Source: Anadara kagoshimensis
Taxonomy: Eukaryota > Mollusca > Bivalvia > Arcoida > Arcidae
Reading direction: 5' to 3'
Assembly: GCA_021292105.1 (NCBI GenBank)
Contig: CM037871.1
Span: forward strand, 22,626,057 to 22,690,056
DNA: 64,000 bases
The position numbers and the translations under genes were made by a program. The notes beneath the pieces are model-generated. The model was not told where the DNA came from. It did no database searches and saw only the letters and a program-made list of their open reading frames with translations. Positions 590-62,871 of this stretch are shown piece by piece (position 1 is the first letter of the stretch; the number at the start of each line of letters is the position of its first letter).

Positions 590-745
590 AAACCCAAATT
601 GTAGGAGATGCTTACCCTTCCAGAGCACCCGGTCTCACTTCATTGGTGGAAGTTCACGTGTTTACCCTAACTTGTCAGTTTTTACTTTGCTTCTGGATTG
701 TGATTTGGACATGGATTAGTATGTTAGTATTTTATTATTATTTCA
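590..745. repeat. Dispersed repeat, copy 1 (second copy about 30,160-30,315)
   Basis: The sequence running from GGAGATGCTTACCC through CGGTCTCACTTC, GAAGTTCACGTGT, TTGTCAGTTTT and GGACATGGATTAGTA recurs in the same order and orientation at about 30,160-30,315. I read it as two copies of one interspersed family. The class is unknown; no ORF or terminal repeats were recognised. Confidence 0.6.
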
Positions 746-13499: not shown

Positions 13500-14499
13500 N
13501 NNNNNNNNNNNNNNNNNNNNNNNNNNNNNNNNNNNNNNNNNNNNNNNNNNNNNNNNNNNNNNNNNNNNNNNNNNNNNNNNNNNNNNNNNNNNNNNNNNNN
13601 NNNNNNNNNNNNNNNNNNNNNNNNNNNNNNNNNNNNNNNNNNNNNNNNNNNNNNNNNNNNNNNNNNNNNNNNNNNNNNNNNNNNNNNNNNNNNNNNNNNN
13701 NNNNNNNNNNNNNNNNNNNNNNNNNNNNNNNNNNNNNNNNNNNNNNNNNNNNNNNNNNNNNNNNNNNNNNNNNNNNNNNNNNNNNNNNNNNNNNNNNNNN
13801 NNNNNNNNNNNNNNNNNNNNNNNNNNNNNNNNNNNNNNNNNNNNNNNNNNNNNNNNNNNNNNNNNNNNNNNNNNNNNNNNNNNNNNNNNNNNNNNNNNNN
13901 NNNNNNNNNNNNNNNNNNNNNNNNNNNNNNNNNNNNNNNNNNNNNNNNNNNNNNNNNNNNNNNNNNNNNNNNNNNNNNNNNNNNNNNNNNNNNNNNNNNN
14001 NNNNNNNNNNNNNNNNNNNNNNNNNNNNNNNNNNNNNNNNNNNNNNNNNNNNNNNNNNNNNNNNNNNNNNNNNNNNNNNNNNNNNNNNNNNNNNNNNNNN
14101 NNNNNNNNNNNNNNNNNNNNNNNNNNNNNNNNNNNNNNNNNNNNNNNNNNNNNNNNNNNNNNNNNNNNNNNNNNNNNNNNNNNNNNNNNNNNNNNNNNNN
14201 NNNNNNNNNNNNNNNNNNNNNNNNNNNNNNNNNNNNNNNNNNNNNNNNNNNNNNNNNNNNNNNNNNNNNNNNNNNNNNNNNNNNNNNNNNNNNNNNNNNN
14301 NNNNNNNNNNNNNNNNNNNNNNNNNNNNNNNNNNNNNNNNNNNNNNNNNNNNNNNNNNNNNNNNNNNNNNNNNNNNNNNNNNNNNNNNNNNNNNNNNNNN
14401 NNNNNNNNNNNNNNNNNNNNNNNNNNNNNNNNNNNNNNNNNNNNNNNNNNNNNNNNNNNNNNNNNNNNNNNNNNNNNNNNNNNNNNNNNNNNNNNNNNN
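13500..14499. other. Assembly gap (1,000 Ns)
   Basis: Exactly 1,000 N bases inside the satellite, the nominal size used for unresolved joins. Long open frames drawn across it are artefacts. Confidence 0.99.
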
Positions 14500-27925: not shown

Positions 27926-28908
27926 TGTGATATGTGTATTTTTGTATTTTATTACATAGTATTATGTAATTTGTTCAGGTTGTATGTTACAGTAGTAACT
28001 TTGATTTTTATGTTTTTCTGACATTTCAATAAATGCACATTTTCAGTTCTATTTATTCTGTTTGTTTTTATTTTATGTATACAAACAACCTTTATTGGTT
28101 TGCCAAACTGAGCTTCCATAACCTTGGTTCGTTATTATATAAGGGGGGGGGGGGCTGTACATAAATCCGTGTTGTATCATGTGAGATTCAATGGTTACGG
28201 GTTACCATTTTAGCCAATGATAAAAATTATATAAAACAATAATAACCATCCAAAAAATTGCGATTTATGATGTTAGGGCAACTTAGGTGAGAGATCGAGT
28301 ACATCCGGTTTCGGTCACGGTCATGTGCACAAAATCGAGAAAAAAGACGAATATGTATCGACGATACACAAATGAAACTTTTGTAGTTCATCTTTGTTTG
28401 GAATTTCATAATTCCTTACACATATTGTGTTCAGAAAACTACATACCTACCTGTTGTGTTGATCAGGGTTTATCTCTAGGCTAGTACTTACAGACGTTTT
28501 CGGAAAATCCATAGCCATAGCCTTGACCTAAAATAGAGCATGTTTTATAAATGTAACGTTACTTCTGAATTCATGTATTTTTTGGGGGGGGGGGGGGATA
28601 TATTATTGATATAATTATATTTTTTTACAAATGATTTTTTTTTTTCAAAAATGTAAAAGATATGTAATATTTATTACATTTCATATAGCGACTGAGACTG
28701 TATAAGGTACAAAGGGGAACAATTCTTGAATTTGCTTAACTCTTTACTTACTCTGAGACTTTCCATAGTGCTACATCCTTTAATTTAGAATTTTTAAATA
28801 CTTACTAATAAAGTAAAAGAATTTTGGTATTTGGTTAGAGAACTTGTTTTAACCAAATGTGAATATGTTTTAGGTTTCGAAGCATTAGCATTATTTCATT
28901 TTTAGCGA
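27926..28908. other. Right flank of satellite, non-coding
   Basis: No gene recognised. An AATAAA hexamer sits at about 28,029 with GT-rich sequence downstream. G homopolymers occur at 28,143-28,154 and 28,584-28,597. The two opposing open frames around 28,227-28,484 have no recognisable domain. Confidence 0.5.
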
Positions 28909-28974
28909 TACGGCATCCGACATGTGTTGGTACGGCATCCGTTGAACTTTAAATTGCACCTGATACGGCATCCG
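28909..28974. repeat. Three spaced copies of TACGGCATCCG
   Basis: TACGGCATCCG occurs at about 28,909, 28,931 and 28,964, spaced 22 and ~33 bp, in otherwise AT-rich sequence. It is too short and local to classify. Confidence 0.5.
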
Positions 28975-29068
28975 TTATATCATACACACTTGGATTTTTT
29001 ACATGTTTAATTTGGTAAATATATTTTTAAAACATCTTGAAATAAATTGCTTTTACACTTTTCGTCCA

Positions 29069-29114
29069 AGCACCACTGATGAGGAATTGCATTCTGAAAT
29101 GACAGTCTAGTACT
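29069..29114 (+). ncRNA. Hammerhead-ribozyme-like motif, copy 1
   Basis: Seen, in order: stem I 5' strand AGCACCA (29,069-29,075); core CTGATGA (29,076-29,082); stem II GGAAT/ATTCT with loop TGC (29,083-29,095); core GAAA (29,096-29,099); a minimal stem III in which six nucleotides (TGACAG) separate GAAA from TC; cleavage triplet GTC (predicted cut after 29,107); stem I 3' strand TAGTACT with 5 of 7 pairs. Known: Penelope-like elements and animal retrozymes carry type I hammerheads with just such a tiny stem III. Inference: a slightly decayed ribozyme from such an element; two stem I mismatches may weaken it. Confidence 0.6.
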
Positions 29115-29374
29115 ATAAAATTAAAATTAGTATAATATGTAATTAAAGCCATTGAGCAGATATCTCTAGATCTGCTGGTGAATGATATCACAAACTCAGT
29201 AGGTAATAGTTGTGCATTAAAGTCAGAAATATACTATTGTCTAAATTTGCTGCTAGTAAAAATATGAAATTTCTTAAAAACTAAAGTATACTAAGTATTT
29301 CCAAAAAATATATTTTGGTCCTTTGAATATTTTTGTAACATCTTGAAAAAAATATGTTTCACAATTTTGATCCA

Positions 29375-29420
29375 AGCACTACTGATGAGGAATCGCGGCG
29401 TTCCGAAACGAGTATACCTT
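29375..29420 (+). ncRNA. Hammerhead-ribozyme-like motif, copy 2 (degenerate)
   Basis: AGCACTA then CTGATGA (29,382-29,388), stem II GGAA/TTCC (29,389-29,404) and GAAA (29,405-29,408) are intact. The 3' side reads CGAGTATACC instead of a six-nucleotide loop, GTC and TAGTGCT, so the cleavage triplet and stem I 3' strand are lost. It lies 306 bp downstream of copy 1 in direct repeat. The upstream flank (ACATCTTGAAA...TCCAAGCAC) and a downstream block (TTTGCTGCTAGTA) are shared by both units. Confidence 0.55.
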
Positions 29421-29424
29421 AATG

Positions 29425-29505
29425 GACAAATATGGCAGATTGGTAGTACTGTGACTGGCTTTCGAAGTCAAGGGTTGTGGGTTCGAACCTCACTCGTGAT
29501 CTGGA
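29425..29505 (+). repeat. tRNA-like (SINE-type) segment
   Basis: It has a box-A-like TGGCAGATTGGTAGTAC and a perfect box-B-type GGTTCGAACC (29,480-29,489) at tRNA-like spacing, but the outer ends do not pair as an acceptor stem and the anticodon arm is weak. So it reads as a tRNA-derived SINE head or relic rather than a functional tRNA. It lies between the copy 2 hammerhead motif and the shared TTTGCTGCTAGTA block. Confidence 0.5.
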
Positions 29506-29559
29506 AATTTTCTGAGAAGATTTTCATCTACTGTCCATACTAGAGTGTCTCAATTTGCT

Positions 29560-30159
29560 GCTAGTATGCGCGTTACGGAAGCTAGGATCGAAGTGGTATT
29601 AACGGTTACGCTGTCGTCCTGTTGCAGTTTTTTTAGTTGCAAGTAGGTTTTCTTGTAAACTTTTACTGCAACCATTAAAATGAAACTAGTCGCGGATAAC
29701 AGCGGAGTTAGTTTTGATTAGCATTTAATTAAGGTAAAATTGAATCTTACACTGAGGGTATTGGTGATTTTCCACTGGGTGTCGGTGATAAATTGTGGGA
29801 TCTGAATTCTTTTATTGTATTGAATCTTCCAATCCAAGTCTACCATGAATTTTCCTGTATAAATTGACAGCTTGTGTGTGTTTGACTTTCGTCCATGGAA
29901 TCGTACTAATCTACTGTTAATTCTGATAGAATTTATGGTAGAGCTTGTTCCCTTTACAACGAAGCAGGCTGCTTGCAAATAAATTGTTGACACAGGGACA
30001 CTGCAAGTCTAGCCTTATAAAGACCCTCAAAAAGTGTTATGGCCGTCATCGCAGTATTGTTGATAAGTTTGATGTCTCTGTGTCCAGGATTGCCCTGGAT
30101 ATATTTAACGTCCCGTGTTCCTTTCACACAATTTTGAGTACACGCGTGGTAGGTGTAAC
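29560..30159. other. Intergenic, no gene recognised
   Basis: Both strands have open frames of 70-90 codons here, overlapping each other without a recognisable domain or splice structure. I treat them as chance. Confidence 0.45.
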
Positions 30160-36649: not shown

Positions 36650-37339
36650 GTGGCTGTGATCAGAGTGACAAATGGACAAATATCAACTTTTGGGAACACA
36701 TTGTGGAGTATGTTCAACCTCAAATTATCTAAAATTATGCATTGTAGGTCATATTTATGGTCGAATGTTTACGGCGAAAGTCGCGGTGAAAACATACCCG
36801 TGTGGAGGTGTTGCCGACGATTTGCAATAAATATCGGGAGGCATTTACTGGATTTGTGCAGTTACGCAAATAAACCCAAGTTTACTACTTTTATTGGTGT
36901 AATTAGATTTGGTTATATTGAAGCTGGTTTATCACAATTACTAAAAAAAACAATATCCTCCCTCCCAATGTGTGAAGAAATCTCTCGCTTCGAAGATGAA
37001 AACGACTAAATTACACCGGAAGTTCTTTGCTTTTATACACTGTGTATTCAGGTGCGGGACAATCCTCGTTAATTGATCACTTTTTCCTACTGATTTCGAA
37101 GTGTATCCCGGCACCGACTGTCGCTTCGTCACCTGGTCAATTACGGTAGGTAGAAAACGTATGTCAATTAATCACATGTAAACCGAAACACTAATTAACT
37201 TTATTTGCTCATTAATGCAGAGATGTAGCTGTCCAGTACTATATCTGAAGAACTGCTCCATTATATATAATATTGTGTACACCGCAGTTAAATCTGCAAT
37301 ACTTGTACTATACTAGGGTAATACCAATGTTAAATGTAC
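36650..37339. other. Intergenic, upstream of nicalin
   Basis: Open frames at 36,650-37,009 (plus) and 36,941-37,132 (minus) overlap, and neither has a recognisable domain. No other feature is seen. Confidence 0.4.
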
Positions 37340-37375
37340 AGCACTAGACGATAATTCCTCCGCATCAGTAGTGCT
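37340..37375 (-). ncRNA. Hammerhead-ribozyme-like motif, copy 3 (stem II eroded)
   Basis: Minus strand: stem I 5' AGCACTA (37,375-37,369), CTGATG, a 13 nt remnant CGGAGGAATTATC, triplet GTC (37,349-37,347), stem I 3' TAGTGCT (37,346-37,340). All seven stem I base pairs and the GTC cleavage triplet are intact, but the last core A and most of stem II are lost. The upstream flank (GTTTCACAATTTTGG...CAAGCACTACTGATG) matches copy 2. Together the three copies rebuild every part of a type I hammerhead. Confidence 0.5.
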
Positions 37376-37473
37376 TGAACCAAAATTGTGAAACCAAATA
37401 TTTTCGAGGTGTTTAAAAAATATAAGAACCAAACTATATTTAAACAAATTTAGGGTAGGAAATACTTTGCATG

Positions 37474-37590
37474 AGGGAGTTAACCTTAGTTTTCGAGGAC
37501 TCACTTCGAAAGTCTGCCGAGGTTTGCCAAACACGCAAGAAACTACAGAGAATGCAAACCAAAGGACCACTCGTCAGTAGTTAACTCCCT
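37474..37590. mobile_element. 117 bp MITE-like element just upstream of nicalin
   Basis: Perfect 11 bp inverted ends AGGGAGTTAAC (37,474) and GTTAACTCCCT (ending 37,590). It ends 108 bp before the nicalin start codon, so it lies in the likely promoter or 5' UTR. Confidence 0.6.
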
Positions 37591-39279: not shown

Positions 39280-39831
39280 AAGAGACATTGCTATTGTGTC
39301 ACCTGAGGTACCTTTTACATGAAACCGTAGTGCACTCGTTTTACAAAAAAGACAACCTAGATTCCCGGGGTCAGGCAAGGACTTTCATTTTAACTATTAT
39401 TATCATGCCAGAAATCAATCTAGTAAAAATAATGTGTAAGTAATTAAGTCCATAAAACATTTACTATCTATTTTTTCTACAGCGTCGCACTGAGTGTAGC
39501 TTAACGATAGTTAAGCGGAGCCAGCGTGAACACTGTAGTATGTCATCGCCTAGCATTTGAAGAACGGGCGGTTTGCTATGAAATAAGTACGCATCAGATT
39601 ATATAGTGCGCACCGGGGATTCCTAGATCTGGATACATTTTGCGAGAGTTGTTTGTGCATGAAACAGTTTGCATAAAATTCACATTAGACCCGTTAAGAT
39701 AACATTTACATAGGTGATTGACGATTGCGTATGGCAATAATAAACCTAAGAGAAAGTAGTCCGTCCATTCAAACTTTGTCTATATCAGAAAGTACTGCGC
39801 CCATTCAAACTGAAAGAGTGAATTCGGTGAC

Positions 39832-40648
39832 TAAATAGTAGTTTTCGTCAACGGATGTGTACGTTTAATTAAAATGATCACGACACCCTGTCCTTTTTGT
39901 AATCAGTTAAATGTCAAAGCTTTTATTCTTTATTCTCGGATCTTCGCCTCGATTTCAATCACTTTGAGATATCTAGTCAACAGTCTCGGAGGATAGACAG
40001 GATTTTCCCATATTCAAAATTTTCATATTTTCATTTTCATAATAAAATCGTCCGTGAAAATTAAAACTGCTTTCAACACTGATAGCTGTGAATATATTTG
40101 TGTTGATTATAAACTTTATTCAACTTAAAATGCTATATAAAGAGCATATTTTGTGTTTATTTATCGATATCACTTAGCGTAAATTTAAAAATCCAATATG
40201 GCGACGACAGTAAATAACCACATAGTAGGTCAAAAAGACCTAAATAGTAGTTTTCGTCAACGGATGTGTACGTTTAATTAAAATGATCACGACACCCTGT
40301 CCTTTTTGTAATCAGTTAAATGTCAAAGCTTTTATTCTTTATTCTCGGATCTTCGCCTCGATTTCAATCACTTTGAGATATCTAGTCAACATTCTCGGAG
40401 GATAGACAGGATTTTCCCATATTCAAAATTTTCATATTTTCATTTTCATAATAAAATCGTGCGTGAAAATTAAAACTGCTTTCAACACTGATAGCTGTGA
40501 ATATATTTGTGTTGATTATAAACTTTATTCAACTTAAAATGCTATATAAAGAGCATATTTTGTGTTTATTTATCGATATCACTTAGCGTAAATTTAAAAA
40601 TCCAATATGGCGACGACAGTAAATAACCACATAGTAGGTCAAAAAGAA
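39832..40648. repeat. 409 bp tandem duplication, two near-identical copies
   Basis: Unit 1 at 39,832-40,240 and unit 2 at 40,241-40,648, each starting TAAATAGTAGTTTTCGTCAA and ending CATAGTAGGTCAAAAAGA. By eye only a few substitutions separate them (for example CAGTCTCGG/CATTCTCGG and CGTCCGTG/CGTGCGTG). This is a recent duplication in intron 1, or possibly a haplotype-merge artefact. Confidence 0.9.
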
Positions 40649-48060: not shown

Positions 48061-50111
48061 AACAAGAGGCCCATGGGCCTGATACGCTCACCTGACAACT
48101 AATGGCTAGCTGATAGATTTAAAGAAAACATAAATACTAAACCCCAATGACTTTTTTCTTTAAATCATGATAACTGTTGTATCAATACCTACAACATTCT
48201 AATATAAATGCCTATACAAAAAGTTAATAGTTTTCAAGATAGTTAACCATTTCAGTGTTGTTTCACATCTGTGACCTTGACCTTTGAACTCATGACCTTT
48301 TTCTATACATCAATATGATCGTTGTATCAATACCTACAACATTCTAATATACATGCCTATACAAAAAGTTTATAGTTTTCGAGATAATTAACCATTTCGG
48401 TATTGTTTCGCATATGTGACCTTGACCTTTGAACCCATGACCTTTTTCTATACATCAAAATGATCGTTGTATCAATACTTACAACATTCTAATATACATG
48501 CCTATACAAAAAGTTTATAGTTTTTGAGATAATTAACCATTTGGGTATTGTTTTGCATCTGGGACCTTGACCTTTGAACCCATGACCTTTTTCTATACAT
48601 TAAAATCATTGTTGTATCAATACCTACAACATTCTAATATACATGCCTATACAAAAAATTTATAGTTTTCGAGATAATTAACCATTTTGGTATTGTTTCA
48701 CATCTGTGACCTTGACCTTTGAACCCATGACCTTTTTCTATACATCAAAATGATCATTGTATCAATACCTACAACATTCTAATATACATGCCTATACAAA
48801 ATGTTAATAGTTTTCGAGATAATTAACCATTTCTGTATTGTTTCGCATCTGTGACCTTGACCTTTGAACCCATGACCTTTTCTATACATCAAAATGATCG
48901 TTGTATCAATACCTACAACATTCTAATATACATGCCTATACAAAAAGTTTATAGTTTTCGAGATAATTAACCATTTTGGTATTGTTTCGCATCTGTGACC
49001 TTGACCTTTGAACCCATGACCTTTTTCTATACATCAAAATGATCGTTGTATCAATACCTACAACATTCTAATATACATCCCTATACAAAATGTTTATAGT
49101 TTTCGAGATAATTAACCATTTGGGTATTGTTTCACATCTGTGACCTTGACCTTTAAACCCATGACCTTTTTCTATACATCAAAATGATCGTTGTATCAAT
49201 ACCTACAACATTCTAATATACATGCCTATACAAAAAGTTTATAGTTTTCGAGATAATTAACCATTTCGGTATTGTTTCACATCTGTGACCTTGACCTTTG
49301 AACCCATGACCTTTTTCTATACATCAAAATGATCGTTGTATCAATACCTACAACATTCTAATATATATGCCTATACAAAAAGTTTATAGTTTTCAAGATA
49401 ATTAACCATTTCGGTATTGTTTCACATCTGTGACCTTGACCTTTGAACCCATGACCTTTTTCTATACATCAAAATGATCGTTGTATCAATACCTACAACA
49501 TTCTAATATACATGCCTATACAAAAAGTTTATAGTTTTCGAGATAATAATTATAATCAGAGGTAAAAAAAATTAGGTCACGACCTTCACAATTGACCTTG
49601 ACCTCAATTTGAAGATACTAACAAGAAGATGTCAAAACTGAAAACCCCATGTCATTATCTGGTCAAATAGTCAAGTTATAACAATTTGAAGCTATTTTAC
49701 GATTTTTTCAAAATTAAACGCAAAAACGCGTAACCTATTTTTTATCCGAATTTCACAAAATGAACAAACTATAGGCTTAAGACCCTAGAGAAGCCAAATA
49801 TCACATCAGATTTTTTCTCCAATCAGTACTTTCGGAGAAGAAGATTTTTTAAGATTTTTGCACCCCTAGGTCACCTTGACCTAGTTATGGTAGCCATGGC
49901 AACGCCACGAACAAATCTGAATTGCACCGGCCCATATATACTTCTGACAAAGTTTCATTAAAAACTGTCCAGTAGTTTCAGAGGAGAAGTCGAAAATAGG
50001 TGTTAACGACGCACACACGCACACACGCACACACGCACACACACCACACACGCACATACACACACGCTGCGCTATGCCATAAGCTCACATGACCTTCGGT
50101 CAGGTGAGCTA
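48061..50111 (+). mobile_element. Helitron-like non-autonomous element B
   Basis: Same family as element A: AACAAGAGGCCCATGGGCC, then CGCTCACCTGA, then about nine ~145 bp direct repeats (48,190-49,540) each holding CTGTGACCTTGACCTTTGAA, then a ~560 bp unique arm with an (AC)n/(CG) tract (50,009-50,065), the hairpin TGACC-TTC-GGTCA and the terminus GGTGAGCTAA. It sits in nicalin intron 4 in the same orientation as the gene. Confidence 0.8.
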
Positions 50112-57709: not shown

Positions 57710-60700
57710 CAGGGTTCAACACAATGTTTTTTAGCTCACCTGACCGAAGGTCATGTGAGCTTATGGCATAGCGCAGCGTGTGTATGTGCGTGTGTGCGTG
57801 TGTGCGTGTGTGCGTGTGTGCGTCGTTAACACCTATTTTCGACTTCTCCTCTGAAACTACTGGACAGTTTTTAATGAAACTTTGTCAGAAGTATATATGG
57901 GCTGGTGCAATTCAGATTTGTTCGTGGCGTTGCTATGGCTACCATAACTAGGTCAAGGTGACCTAGGGGTGCAAAAATCTTAAAAAATCTTCTTCTCCGA
58001 AAGTACTGATTGGAGAAAAAATCTGATGTGATATTTGGCTTCTCTAGGGTCTTAAGCCTATAGTTTGTTCATTTTGTGAAATTCGGATAAAAAATAGGTT
58101 ACGCGTTTTTGCGTTTAATTTTGAAAAAAATCGTAAAATAGCTTCAAATTGTTATAACTTGACTATTTGACCAGATAATGACATGGGGTTTTCAGTTTTG
58201 ACATCTTCTTGTTAATATCTTCAAAATGAGGTCAAGGTCGATTGTGAAGGTCGTGACCTAATTTTTTGTACCTCTGATTATAATTATTATCTCGAAAACT
58301 ATAAACTTTTTGTATAGGCATGTATATTAGAATGTTGTAGGTATCGATACAACGATCATTTTGATGTATAGAAAAAGGTCATGGGTTCAAAGGTCAAGGT
58401 CACAGATGCGAAACAATACCGAAATGGTTAATTATCTCGAAAACTATAAACATTTTGTATAGGCATGTATATTAGAATGTTGTAGGTATTGATACAACGA
58501 TCATTTTGGTGTATAGAAAAAGGTCATAGGTTCAAAGGTCAAGGTCACAGATGCGAAACAATACTGAAATGGTTAATTATCTCGAAAAGTATAAACTTTT
58601 TGTATAGGCTTGTATATTAGAATGTTGTAGGTATTGATACAACGATCATTTTGATGTATAGAAAAAGGTCATAGGTTCAAAGGTCAAGGTCACAGATGTG
58701 AAACAATACTGAAATGGTTAATTATCTCGAAAACTATAAACTTTTTGTATAGGCATGTATATTAGAATGTTGTAGGTATTGATACAACGATCATTTTGAT
58801 GTATAGAAAAAGGTCATAGGTTCAAAGGTCAAGGTCACAGATGTGAAACAATACTGAAATGGTTAATTATCTCGAAAACTATAAACTTTTTGTATAGGCA
58901 TGTATATTAGAATGTTGTAGGTATTAATACAACGATCATTTTGATGTATAGAAAAAGGTCATGGGTTCAAAGGTAAAGGTCACAGATGTGAAACAATACT
59001 GAAATGGTTAATTATCTCGAAAACTATAAACTTTTTGTATAGGCATGTATATTAGAATGTTGTAGGTATTGATACAACGATCATTTTGATGTATAGAAAA
59101 AGGTCATGGGTTCAAAGGTCAAGGTCACAGATGCGAAACAATACCAAAATGGTTAATTATCTCGAAAACTATAAATATTTTGTATAGGCATATATATTAG
59201 AATGTTGTAGGTATCGATACAACGATCATTTTGATGTATAGAAAAAGGTCTTGGGTTCAAAGGTCAAGGTCACAGATTCGAAACAATACCGAAATGGTTA
59301 ATTATCTCGAAAACTATAAACATTTTGTATAGGCATATATATTAGAATGTTGTAGGTATCGATACAACGATCATTTTGATGTATAGAAAAAGGTCATGGG
59401 TTCAAAGGCCAAGGTCACAGATGCGAAACAATACCGAAATGGTTAATTATCTCGAAAACTATAAACATTTTGTATAGGCATGTATATTAGAATGTTGTAG
59501 GTATTGATACAACGATCATTTTGGTGTATAGAAAAAGGTTATGGGTTCAAAGGTCAAGGTCACATATGCGAAACAATAAGGAAATGTTTAATTATCTCAA
59601 AAACTATAAACTTTTTGTATAGGCATGTATATTAGAATGTTGTATGTATCGATACAACGATCATGTTGATGTATAGAAAAAGGACATGAATTCAAAGGTC
59701 AAGGTCACAGATGTGAAACAATACCAAAATGGTTAATTATTTCGAAAACTATAAACTTTTTGTATAGGCATGTATATTAGAATGTTGTAGGTATTGATAC
59801 AACGATCATTTTGATGTATAGAAAAAGGTCATGGGTTCAAAGGTCAAGGTCACAGAAGCAAAACAATACCAAAAGGGTTAATTATCTTTTTGTATAGGCA
59901 TGTATATTAGAATGTTGTAGGTATTGATACAATGGTTATCATGATGTAAAGAAAAAAGTCATTGGGGTTTAGTTTTTATGTGTTCTTTAAATCTATCAGC
60001 TAGCCATTAGTTATCAGGTGAGCGTATCAGGCCCATGGGCCTCTTGTTTAAGACTAGACCAGTCGGGCTAGTTCTGAGAATTTTTACTAGCCCTGAACTA
60101 AATTCTACTAGCCCGAAAATAGTCATGATAAATGTGTTTTATCTCATCATTTTTCATCCTGTCGATGTCATCTTTAACCCATTTAAACCATTTTTCTGTC
60201 TCTTTTCATTGTCATACTTCTTTTAGTTTCTTCCCTATCCTTTACTTACAATATTTCTTTGCCTGACCGGTAAAACCAAAATTGAAGAGAGTCGTCATCG
60301 ATGCAGGGCTCTCTTGAGTCTCTTCTATATAATGAAACCTGCAATGCAGGTCATGACCTGCATAGAGCCCCTTTTCAAGTTTAAAATGATAAATTTCAAA
60401 CAAACATACTTTATCGTGCATTACATTACTAGTAATTAAGTTTATGTAAATGATGGACTAGTAACAACACTGTCAACACTGTTAAATACAGTAATATCTT
60501 TAAGAAAGAAGTTAACAAAGTTTAAAAGAAAAGCTACTGTTATATCAATGTTGCTTCCTCATAGTAGTCCACATTGGGGTGCTCTACTTGTATGCAGGAT
60601 ATCCGAAAAGACCAAGTTTTTTTTTTTTTTTTTTTTTTAATAGGTATTAATAAATTACTTTTAACAGTGAAAAAATTACACGTGATAGTTTTCTTACAAA

Positions 60701-61412: not shown

Positions 61413-62871
61413 CGATCATTTTGATACATAGATCAGGTTCATGTGTTCAAAGGTCAAGGTCACAGATGTCCAAGTATACCAAAATAGTTAATTATCTGCA
61501 AAACTATGAATTTTTTGTACAGGCATGTATATTAGAATATTGTAGGTAATGGCACAATGGTCATTTTTATATATGAATAAAGGTCATGGGTTCAAAGGTC
61601 AAGGTCACAGATGTAAACAAGTACTGAAATGGTTAATTATCTCAAAAACTATAAACTTTTTGTATAGGCATGTATATTAAAATATTGTAGGTATTATCCT
61701 AACGATCATTTTGATATATGAATAAAGCTTGTGGGTTCAAAGGTCAAGGTCACAGATGGGAATAAATACCTAAATAGTTTATTATCTGCAAAACTATTAA
61801 CTTTTTGTATATGCATGTATATTAGAATATTATAGGAGTTAGCCTTGCAACCATTTTTATATATGAATGAAGATTATTGGTTCAAAGGTCATGGTCACAG
61901 ATGCAAATGGATACTGAAATAGTTAATTATCTGCAAAACTATTAACTTTTTGTATAGGCATGTATACTAGAATATTGTAGGTAATAGCACAATGGTCAAT
62001 AGGATATATGAATGAAGGTCATGGGTTCAAAGGTCAAGGCCATAGATACAAACAACTACTGAAATGATTATTTATCTATATGAATGAACCTCATTGTTTC
62101 AAAGGTCAAGGTCACAGGTGAGCGTTAAGGCCCATGGGCCTCTTGTTCTAAGGCATGTATATTAGAATATTGTTGGTATTGATGTAACGATCATTTTGAT
62201 GTATAGGTTAAGGTCATGTGTTCAAAGGTCAAGGTCACAGTAGCAAAACAATACCAAAATGGTCAATTATCTTTAAAACTTTTAACATTTTCTATAGGCA
62301 TATATATTAGAATATTGTAGATATTAATTCAACTACTATTTTGATATATAGAAAAAGGTTATGGGTTCAAATGTCAAGGTCACAGATGCAAAAAATTGCT
62401 GAAATTGTTATTTCTTCACTATTTGATAATGACTTGGGGTTTTCAGTTTTGAAATATTCTTGTAATTGCCTTCTAAATGAGATCAAGGTCAATTGTGAAG
62501 GTTATGACCTAATGTTTTCCCTTATCTGAAAAAAAATTGTTGACCCAATTTTTAGGTAGTTTTGTTTCAACCAAATCATTGAAAATTTTCTCCTGAATTT
62601 ATCAATTCTAACCCAATACAGCATTAAAAGTTCTTTAGTAACAGTAATCCAAAAGTTGTGTCTGGCATATCAGCCAAAATCCAAGGTGGCTTCTGTTCCT
62701 ATACATAGCAAAAACATGAAAGACCAATGCAGATTTGTTTTCCAGCCACTTTAGTTCCAGTTGCAATTGTAAAAAGGAGTGGGAATGCCATTTCACTAGA
62801 TTTGCATGTTTTTTATCAAAAATGTAAATTACCTGTCAATTGAGCATCACAGGCCCTATTGGGCCTCTTGT

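What the first reader, a model, noticed from the sequence alone, without database searches (positions are those of the whole stretch)
29069..29420. Two hammerhead-ribozyme-like motifs in a 306 bp direct repeat (retrozyme or Penelope-type)
Copy 1 has the full core (CTGATGA, stem II GGAAT/ATTCT, GAAA), exactly six nucleotides between GAAA and TC (minimal stem III), and a GTC cleavage triplet. Copy 2 keeps CTGATGA, stem II and GAAA. Established: Penelope-like elements and metazoan retrozymes carry type I hammerheads with tiny stem III, often as tandem units of a few hundred bp. Two direct units 306 bp apart with shared flanks fit that pattern. A self-cleaving, circRNA-forming element is an inference.
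Basis: partly seen in the sequence, partly recalled or inferred. Interest (0 to 1): 0.85.

Follow-up and report, generated by a model that had tools for sequence, protein, structure and literature searches.

The report
Decayed copies of an animal retrozyme
The two motifs are worn-out copies of a small, very numerous mobile RNA element that carries a self-cutting ribozyme, and other copies of it show a fixed start point for copying back into DNA, next to a signal that it seems to share with a Penelope-type retrotransposon of the same genome.

Summary
In detail: two hammerhead-like cores lie 306 bp apart on the + strand. Rfam does not recognise them (none at E<=10), but they belong to a family of about 339-bp tandem units in this 1.1-Gb genome, whose hammerhead 40-mer (<=3 mismatches) occurs 11,430 times. 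The window copies are decayed: copy 1 has two mismatches in stem I, copy 2 lacks its cleavage half, and a third wreck lies at 37,321-37,493.

New here is how copies end. 48 of 60 mapped elements stop 35-41 nt downstream of the cleavage site while their 5' ends are spread around the unit; 26-mer counts fall from 16,217 to 3,458 across that point. The sequence just beyond it resembles the terminus of an abundant co-resident Penelope-like element (PLE) with N-terminal GIY-YIG, whose own copies end at the matching place. Best reading: uncut, probably circular retrozyme RNA is reverse-transcribed from an internal start by this PLE's machinery. The end structure is shown; self-cleavage, circles and the enzyme are inferred. 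Against: copies show no compensatory changes, and the module match is modest (2 to 12 of 1000 shuffles reach it).

The parts
28982..29421 (+). decayed retrozyme element: partial unit, one complete unit of 306 bp (shortened by deletions) and start of a further unit; both ends approximate
   Evidence: Local alignment to one family unit from 28982, 82% over 554 aligned bases (that alignment also runs through the SINE to 29565); the BLAST match that is safe by itself is 29024-29410
29066..29116 (+). hammerhead copy 1 (type I core; cleavage would be after 29107); stem I has two C-A mismatches, the palindrome of stem III is lost
   Evidence: 52.3 bits with the family model
29108..29143 (+). unit positions 1-36: the tail between the cleavage site and the point where family copies end
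29149..29195 (+). degraded counterpart of the module beyond the 3' end point that resembles the PLE terminus
   Evidence: alignment; letters; module
29372..29410 (+). hammerhead copy 2: stem I 5' arm, CTGATGA, stem II, GAAA; cleavage half missing
29423..29547 (+). tRNA-like SINE directly after copy 2 (not part of the retrozyme)
   Evidence: Rfam tRNA 20.1 bits at 29432-29494, under its cut-off of 29; 40 other genome matches of 84-92% identity
37321..37493 (-). second, older retrozyme copy: stem I arms kept, stem II 3' half, GAAA and stem III region deleted
   Evidence: 37338-37378, 32.9 bits
29934..30317 (+). 3' fragment of the candidate partner PLE, about 0.5 kb downstream of the retrozyme
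   Evidence: 83%, E 2.5e-122
603..737 (+). another 3' fragment of the same PLE
   Evidence: 85%, E 4.5e-43

Best explanation
The window holds dead copies of a metazoan non-LTR retrozyme. Working members are 339-nt units with a type I hammerhead (stem I AGCACTA/TAGTGCT, stem II GGAAT/ATTCC, a six-base stem III region CGGCCG). Transcripts of tandem units would be cut by the ribozyme, probably acting as a dimer through the palindrome ACGGCCGU, and religated to 339-nt circles (inferred, as shown experimentally for mussel, coral and axolotl retrozymes). A Penelope-like element (PLE) with an N-terminal GIY-YIG endonuclease then nicks AT-rich DNA and starts reverse transcription inside the RNA, 35-36 nt downstream of the cleavage site, next to a module that the retrozyme shares with the PLE's own terminus. 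Synthesis runs for less than one to more than eight turns, which gives copies with one fixed 3' end, random 5' ends and tandem units. Shown: family, fixed 3' end across an unbroken cleavage site, dispersed 5' ends, similar module in a co-resident PLE at the matching place. Inferred: self-cleavage, circle as template, identity of the enzyme.
For: 11,430 hammerhead 40-mers at <=3 mismatches, reversed-pattern control 0. 48 of 60 de-duplicated complete elements end at unit position 35-41, in every case across an unbroken cleavage site; the base after position 35 is T in 43 of 48; 5' ends fit a uniform spread (KS p 0.39, n 48), 3' ends do not (3e-41, n 60). Genome-wide 26-mers at <=2 mismatches: positions 10-35, 16,217; 18-43 (across the point), 3,458; 46-71, 2,649; controls 0. 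Units of one array are alike: 52 pairs in 8 arrays, median 0.6% different, against 4.1% in 509 pairs between arrays. Predicted best dimer is a two-hammerhead fold, -36.7 kcal/mol against -13.4 for each monomer. PLE: RT and N-terminal GIY-YIG in one frame (94-numbered locus); its 5' motif matches unit positions 53-88 (blastn E 2.3e-4), lies 2,000-2,014 nt before RT hits at six places that I paired by eye, and begins at one base in 43 of 50 listed places. 37 of 64 PLE match ends held in the loci fall within 10 nt of one 3' end, which in tandem PLE pieces lies 7 nt before the shared module (8 nt in the retrozyme). Published PLE behaviour: internal start of reverse transcription, AT-rich cleavage of both strands (PMC11167929); optional 31-bp tail, head-to-head inverted terminal repeats, mobilisation in trans by terminal repeats (PMC3846280, passages).
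Against: No compensatory changes in the hammerhead copies. The monomer's predicted best fold is not the hammerhead (-13.4 against -8.9), and the 339-nt circle is no more stable than shuffles (z -0.24), unlike the highly self-paired circles in the literature. The module match is modest by sequence alone: 2 of 1000 dinucleotide shuffles reach the best unit-PLE score; for the tandem junction 12 of 1000 with the reference unit and 1 of 1000 with the L025-type unit; it was found after looking, and the PLE was met because a retrozyme lies inside a copy of it. One scoring scheme gave no signal at all (gap costs too low to be a fair test). No hammerhead was found in the PLE pieces then held (L091-L093). 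RT and GIY-YIG Pfam scores lie just under the curated cut-offs. 12 of 60 elements do not end at 35-41: seven at 17-30, five elsewhere. Three of eight arrays have units that differ by more than 1.5% (L012 3.5-5.3%, L018 about 3%, L026 1.2-3.5%). No pile-up and no depletion of 5' ends at the cleavage site, so a long uncut linear RNA serves as well as a circle.
Confidence: 0.72

Rival explanations
1. Same retrozyme, but the reverse-transcription template is a long uncut tandem transcript rather than a circle; the ribozyme matters for something else.
For: Each of the 48 elements crosses an unbroken cleavage site, which an uncut linear multimer provides as well. In the anole PLE, ribozyme mutants did not change insertion and unprocessed RNA was the main substrate (PMC11167929).
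Against: Units within most arrays are nearly identical, which one circle gives directly, though a homogeneous source array would too. The longest array held has 8.5 units (2,896 bp).
Confidence: 0.35
2. The mobilising enzyme is another retroelement (a LINE, or a classical PLE that has its own hammerhead), and the likeness to the N-terminal-GIY-YIG PLE is chance or a shared general motif.
For: Sequence significance of the module is modest; no hammerhead in the PLE parts held. Only this one RT family was searched; the genome search with GIY-YIG (PF01541) never got an answer.
Against: The likeness falls exactly where both element kinds have their fixed 3' ends, with 7 and 8 nt of spacing.
Confidence: 0.27
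3. An ordinary satellite that spreads as DNA (unequal crossing-over, extrachromosomal circles) and merely contains a hammerhead-like word.
For: Tandem arrays with homogeneous units; no constant target-site duplication: only a weak excess of short shared words between flanks (mean 5.5 against 4.9, sd 0.15).
Against: Most copies near exact hammerheads on contig C1 are shorter than one unit and end at the same point with scattered 5' ends; one insert sits in a PLE gene of which an uninterrupted relative is held, with no duplication or loss and three extra bases.
Confidence: 0.03
4. The two motifs are chance look-alikes.
For: No Rfam match; stem I is broken.
Against: Family matches with E down to 1.9e-86 elsewhere in the genome with complete stems and core.
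Confidence: 0.01

Closest known systems
Metazoan non-LTR retrozymes, above all those of the mussel Mytilus galloprovincialis (Cervera and de la Pena 2020, PMC7229834)
   Same: Type I hammerhead in tandem units of a few hundred bp (mussel about 350-390, here about 339), low GC (0.33 here), no long frame (longest 43 aa), thousands of copies.
   Different: Here the hammerhead core 40-mer has 11,430 near matches (mussel about 5000 copies reported). A fixed 3' end 35-36 nt past the cleavage site and a PLE-like module beyond it are described here; the sections and passages of that paper that I saw do not describe end points beyond TSD size. Circles and cleavage were measured there, not here.
Penelope-like elements with internal initiation of reverse transcription (Poseidon of the green anole, PMC11167929; Adineta vaga Penelope, PMC3846280)
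   Same: Tandem or partial-tandem copies, a short tail past the hammerhead, 5' truncation, head-to-head inverted copies, AT-rich targets, irregular or no TSD.
   Different: The retrozyme has no protein gene. In the anole element the start sites lie 85-92 nt past the hammerhead cut (from the published 26 and 111-118), here 35-36 nt.
PLEs with N-terminal GIY-YIG ('permuted' PLEs; the name Naiad and the clade definition are recalled, the paper PMC8557442 is not held)
   Same: The co-resident PLE has GIY-YIG before the RT in one frame and shares the module at the 3' end point.
   Different: It is autonomous and no hammerhead was seen in the parts held.

Membership tests
Metazoan non-LTR retrozyme | Type I hammerhead with conserved core and cleavage triplet | tested here: met
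   Family copies: complete core, 7-bp stem I, 5-bp stem II, GTC. Rfam Hammerhead_1 at three places in 5 family loci, 19.0-21.1 bits, under its cut-off of 34 and, in the alignment shown, out of register. Window copies themselves fail stem I.
Metazoan non-LTR retrozyme | Tandem units of 150-450 bp, low GC | tested here: met
   About 339 bp, GC 0.33; arrays up to 8.5 units in the loci held
Metazoan non-LTR retrozyme | No protein gene and no LTR, primer site or polypurine tract | tested here: inconclusive
   Longest stop-to-stop frame in the tandem unit 43 aa; primer site and polypurine tract not searched for
Metazoan non-LTR retrozyme | TSD longer than 4 bp when present | tested here: inconclusive
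   No constant TSD; weak excess of short shared words in 48 flank pairs; one insert without TSD against a related empty site; a 30-nt repeat at L067 may be local repeat
Metazoan non-LTR retrozyme | Expressed as linear and circular RNA; self-cleaves | not testable with these tools
   No RNA data or bench work
Metazoan non-LTR retrozyme | Highly self-paired circle | tested here: not met
   Circular fold -59.6 kcal/mol, shuffles -58.3, sd 5.3. A descriptive feature of published circles, not one I take as defining
Penelope-like element | Encodes RT, canonically with GIY-YIG endonuclease | tested here: not met
   The unit has no frame over 43 aa. So it is not a PLE; it may work with one
Penelope-like element | Fixed internal start of reverse transcription, seen as a tail past the hammerhead | tested here: met
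N-terminal-GIY-YIG PLE (for the candidate partner L092, L093, L094) | GIY-YIG before RT in one frame | tested here: met
   GIY-YIG 21.6 bits (cut-off 22.6), RVT_1 23.5-27.2 bits (cut-off 29.6); C10 copy has a 1067-aa open frame holding both places
N-terminal-GIY-YIG PLE (for the candidate partner L092, L093, L094) | Placement in that clade in an RT tree | not tested
   No reference PLE proteins at hand

The most novel reading that the evidence does not exclude
This retrozyme is a cis-acting parasite of one identified host element: it carries the initiation module of a co-resident N-terminal-GIY-YIG PLE just beyond the point where its own copies end, and each insertion is rolling-circle reverse transcription of a ribozyme-made RNA circle that starts internally at that point. 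This would name the machinery that moves metazoan retrozymes, by a PLE without a hammerhead of its own.
Probability: 0.42. Interest if true: 0.85.

Novelty: new member of a known kind. Interest (0 to 1): 0.62.

Why it matters
A 2020 review states that metazoan retrozyme repeats show no conserved motif that would help deduce the autonomous partner (PMC7761336, passage), and names PLEs as likely candidates. A fixed start point inside the RNA and a module shared with a PLE of the same genome turn that open question into two direct tests: an in vitro initiation assay, and a comparison of end points across species. If right, it also gives a natural case of circular RNA as template for genome insertion.

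Tried and rejected
Hammerhead in a SINE: the tRNA-like sequence after copy 2 recurs elsewhere (40 other matches), and the upstream letters printed for 29 other copies show no hammerhead by eye; so it is a neighbour. The 21-nt repeat at 29238 and 29546 suggests that unit 2 once ran on past the SINE place; I did not resolve how SINE and unit 2 were combined.

Rfam Hammerhead_1 over the whole genome: nothing, but its 14 control genomes gave nothing either, so it says nothing. Phage records: no match. PDB sequences with the PLE RT: no match. Pfam accession PF26215 does not exist in the library.

Constant TSD: not found. Head-to-head pairs as sign of two-sided priming: 4 loci with 5'-to-5' neighbours under 120 bp (L026 gap 16, L029 82, L068 overlap 6, L084/L085 102; both partners end at 35-41), against one 3'-to-3' and one tandem neighbour pair under 120 bp, both at L068; suggestive, numbers too small.

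Alignment scoring with cheap gaps put all 300 shuffles above the observed score; I replaced it by BLAST-like costs. A first module pattern had a spacer one base too long (5 matches); the corrected one did not complete.

Sampling limits: L002-L030 came by likeness to the window's two units, L061-L090 by exact hammerheads on contig C1; 83 rows became 63 after removing repeats, 3 of them cut by a locus end were dropped, leaving 60. The alignment for pair counts included window copy 1.

Full report
What is there. The window is G000:C15:22626057-22690056 of an unnamed 1.115-Gb genome of 36 contigs; the species is not established here. At 29076 and 29382 lie two hammerhead cores on the + strand, 306 bp apart, within a 70-nt direct repeat of 83% identity. 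Rfam sees no hammerhead there. A descriptor scan shows the reason: stem II and the core are present, but stem I is down to one contiguous pair in copy 1 and copy 2 has no proper cleavage half; shuffled windows gave 0-3 equally relaxed rows, in 2 of 10 cases any at all.

The family. A genome search with 29021-29590 returned 73 matches, the best outside the window at E 1.9e-86, 77% identity, over the two-unit part only. The fetched copies are tandem arrays of about 339 bp with a complete type I hammerhead: AGCACTA-CTGATGA-GGAATTGTATTCC-GAAA-CGGCCG-TC-TAGTGCT. The 40-mer from CTGATGA on has 11,430 matches at up to 3 mismatches (5,760 and 5,670 on the two strands), the reversed control none. Rfam's Hammerhead_1 scores 19.0-21.1 bits at three places in five family loci, under its cut-off of 34. 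A covariance model from 35 family copies finds both window sites and a third at 37338-37378 on the - strand, where a deletion has removed part of stem II, GAAA and stem III. Among 36 copies, window copy 1 included, 92.1% of stem cells are paired (21-48% with the partner slid by 1-3 columns), but no pair has changed on both sides: the differences are decay, not covariation.

How copies end. I mapped one natural unit, numbered from the base after the cleavage site, onto the fetched loci. After removing repeats, 60 elements had both ends inside their locus; 48 end at positions 35-41, seven at 17-30 and five elsewhere. Position 35 is the last base shared by these copies; the next is T in 43 of 48. 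Their 5' ends fit a uniform spread (KS p 0.39), one of 48 lying at position 1; lengths of all 60 run from 42 to 2,896 bp. Genome-wide 26-mers at up to 2 mismatches agree: 16,217 for positions 10-35, 3,458 for 18-43, 2,649 for 46-71, controls 0, so nearly four in five copies that reach position 35 do not go on. One insert lies in a PLE gene; against an uninterrupted relative there is no duplication or loss, only three extra bases at the 5' junction. Flanks of the 48 show a weak excess of short shared words but no constant TSD. Within 8 arrays the units differ by a median of 0.6% (52 pairs), between arrays by 4.1% (509 pairs); L012, L018 and L026 are more mixed.

What this implies. Each of the 48 copies crosses an unbroken cleavage site and stops about 35 nt later. 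A cut linear unit cannot serve as template for that; an RNA circle or an uncut multimer can. Internal initiation that leaves a short tail is what purified anole PLE protein does in vitro, with AT-rich cleavage of both strands (PMC11167929; parts 1-3 of 4 of the text read); passages of PMC3846280 describe an optional 31-bp tail, head-to-head inverted terminal repeats and mobilisation in trans by terminal repeats. Here 4 loci have 5'-to-5' neighbours under 120 bp apart, which fits but is few.

The candidate partner. An RT fragment beside a retrozyme (RVT_1 E 3.9e-06, under the curated cut-off) has 150 scored relatives in the genome. In one copy on C10 a 1067-aa open frame holds the RT place and, upstream in the same frame, a GIY-YIG domain (E 2.8e-4, 21.6 bits, cut-off 22.6). 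So this is a PLE with N-terminal endonuclease; its clade name is recalled, not tested. Its 5' end motif matches retrozyme positions 53-88 (blastn E 2.3e-4). In a genome search with that region 43 of 50 listed matches begin at the same base, and six could be paired by eye with RT places 2,000-2,014 nt downstream. In L008, tandem pieces join the PLE's 3' end, 16 further bases and the PLE's 5' end; the order is 3' end, 7 nt, CTGGGTCGGTGTCTCTGCTGGTGG, against 3' end, 8 nt, CTGAGCCGATATCTCTGCTGGTGG in the retrozyme. An L025-type retrozyme unit matches that PLE junction at 44 of 58 positions without gaps (identity worked out from the printed alignment and score). PLE copies in the held loci also end at one place: 37 of 64 match ends within 10 nt.

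How strong the link is. By sequence alone it is modest: 2 of 1000 dinucleotide shuffles of the PLE reach the best score, 12 of 1000 for the junction with the reference unit and 1 of 1000 with the L025 type. Mononucleotide shuffles gave 26 against a highest of 20.5 in 500, and 27.5 against a highest of 27.5 in 1000. What raises it is position: the match lies at the end point of both elements. It was found after the fact, in the only RT family looked at.

Ribozyme. The predicted best fold of two copies is a double hammerhead sharing the palindrome ACGGCCGU (-36.7 kcal/mol); the monomer's best fold is another (-13.4, against -8.9 for the hammerhead); window copy 1 in hammerhead fold has -0.6. That fits hammerheads that act as dimers, reported for axolotl retrozymes (PMC7229834, passages). 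The unit circle is no more stable than shuffles. Nothing here shows cleavage or circles.

Known or new. Retrozymes of mussels, with units of about 350-390 bp, some 5000 hammerheads, measured cleavage and circles, are published (PMC7229834, sections on cnidarians, mussels and discussion read). The element is therefore a new member of a known kind. I did not find a description of a fixed 3' end or of a PLE module for metazoan retrozymes in eight searches of the held open-access library or in the sections and passages seen; subscription papers, supplements and the papers were not seen.

Noticed in passing
3020-27925: A 25-kb array of a 38-bp (75-bp) repeat, about 663 copies, with strong base skew; 1000 N at 13500-14499 lie inside it.
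   Followed up: no
48147-49547, 58286-59887, 61414-62077: Three arrays of a 145-bp satellite, one inverted relative to the others; a retrozyme at L010 seems to be inserted in the same satellite.
   Followed up: no
39831-40647: Two 409-bp units in tandem, 99% alike.
   Followed up: no
29423-29547: tRNA-like SINE joined directly to hammerhead copy 2; a 21-nt stretch of unit 1 recurs just after it at the spacing expected for a second unit.
   Followed up: partly
L008 1-540 (- strand) and G000:C4:52466358-52467434: Tandem arrays of about 141 and 125 bp; in L008 they consist of the PLE's 3' end joined through 16 bases to its 5' end, a possible mini-PLE without a hammerhead; on C4 only the 5' motif was seen.
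   Followed up: partly
28906-28976: Three copies of TACGGCATCCG within 70 bp, just upstream of the retrozyme.
   Followed up: no
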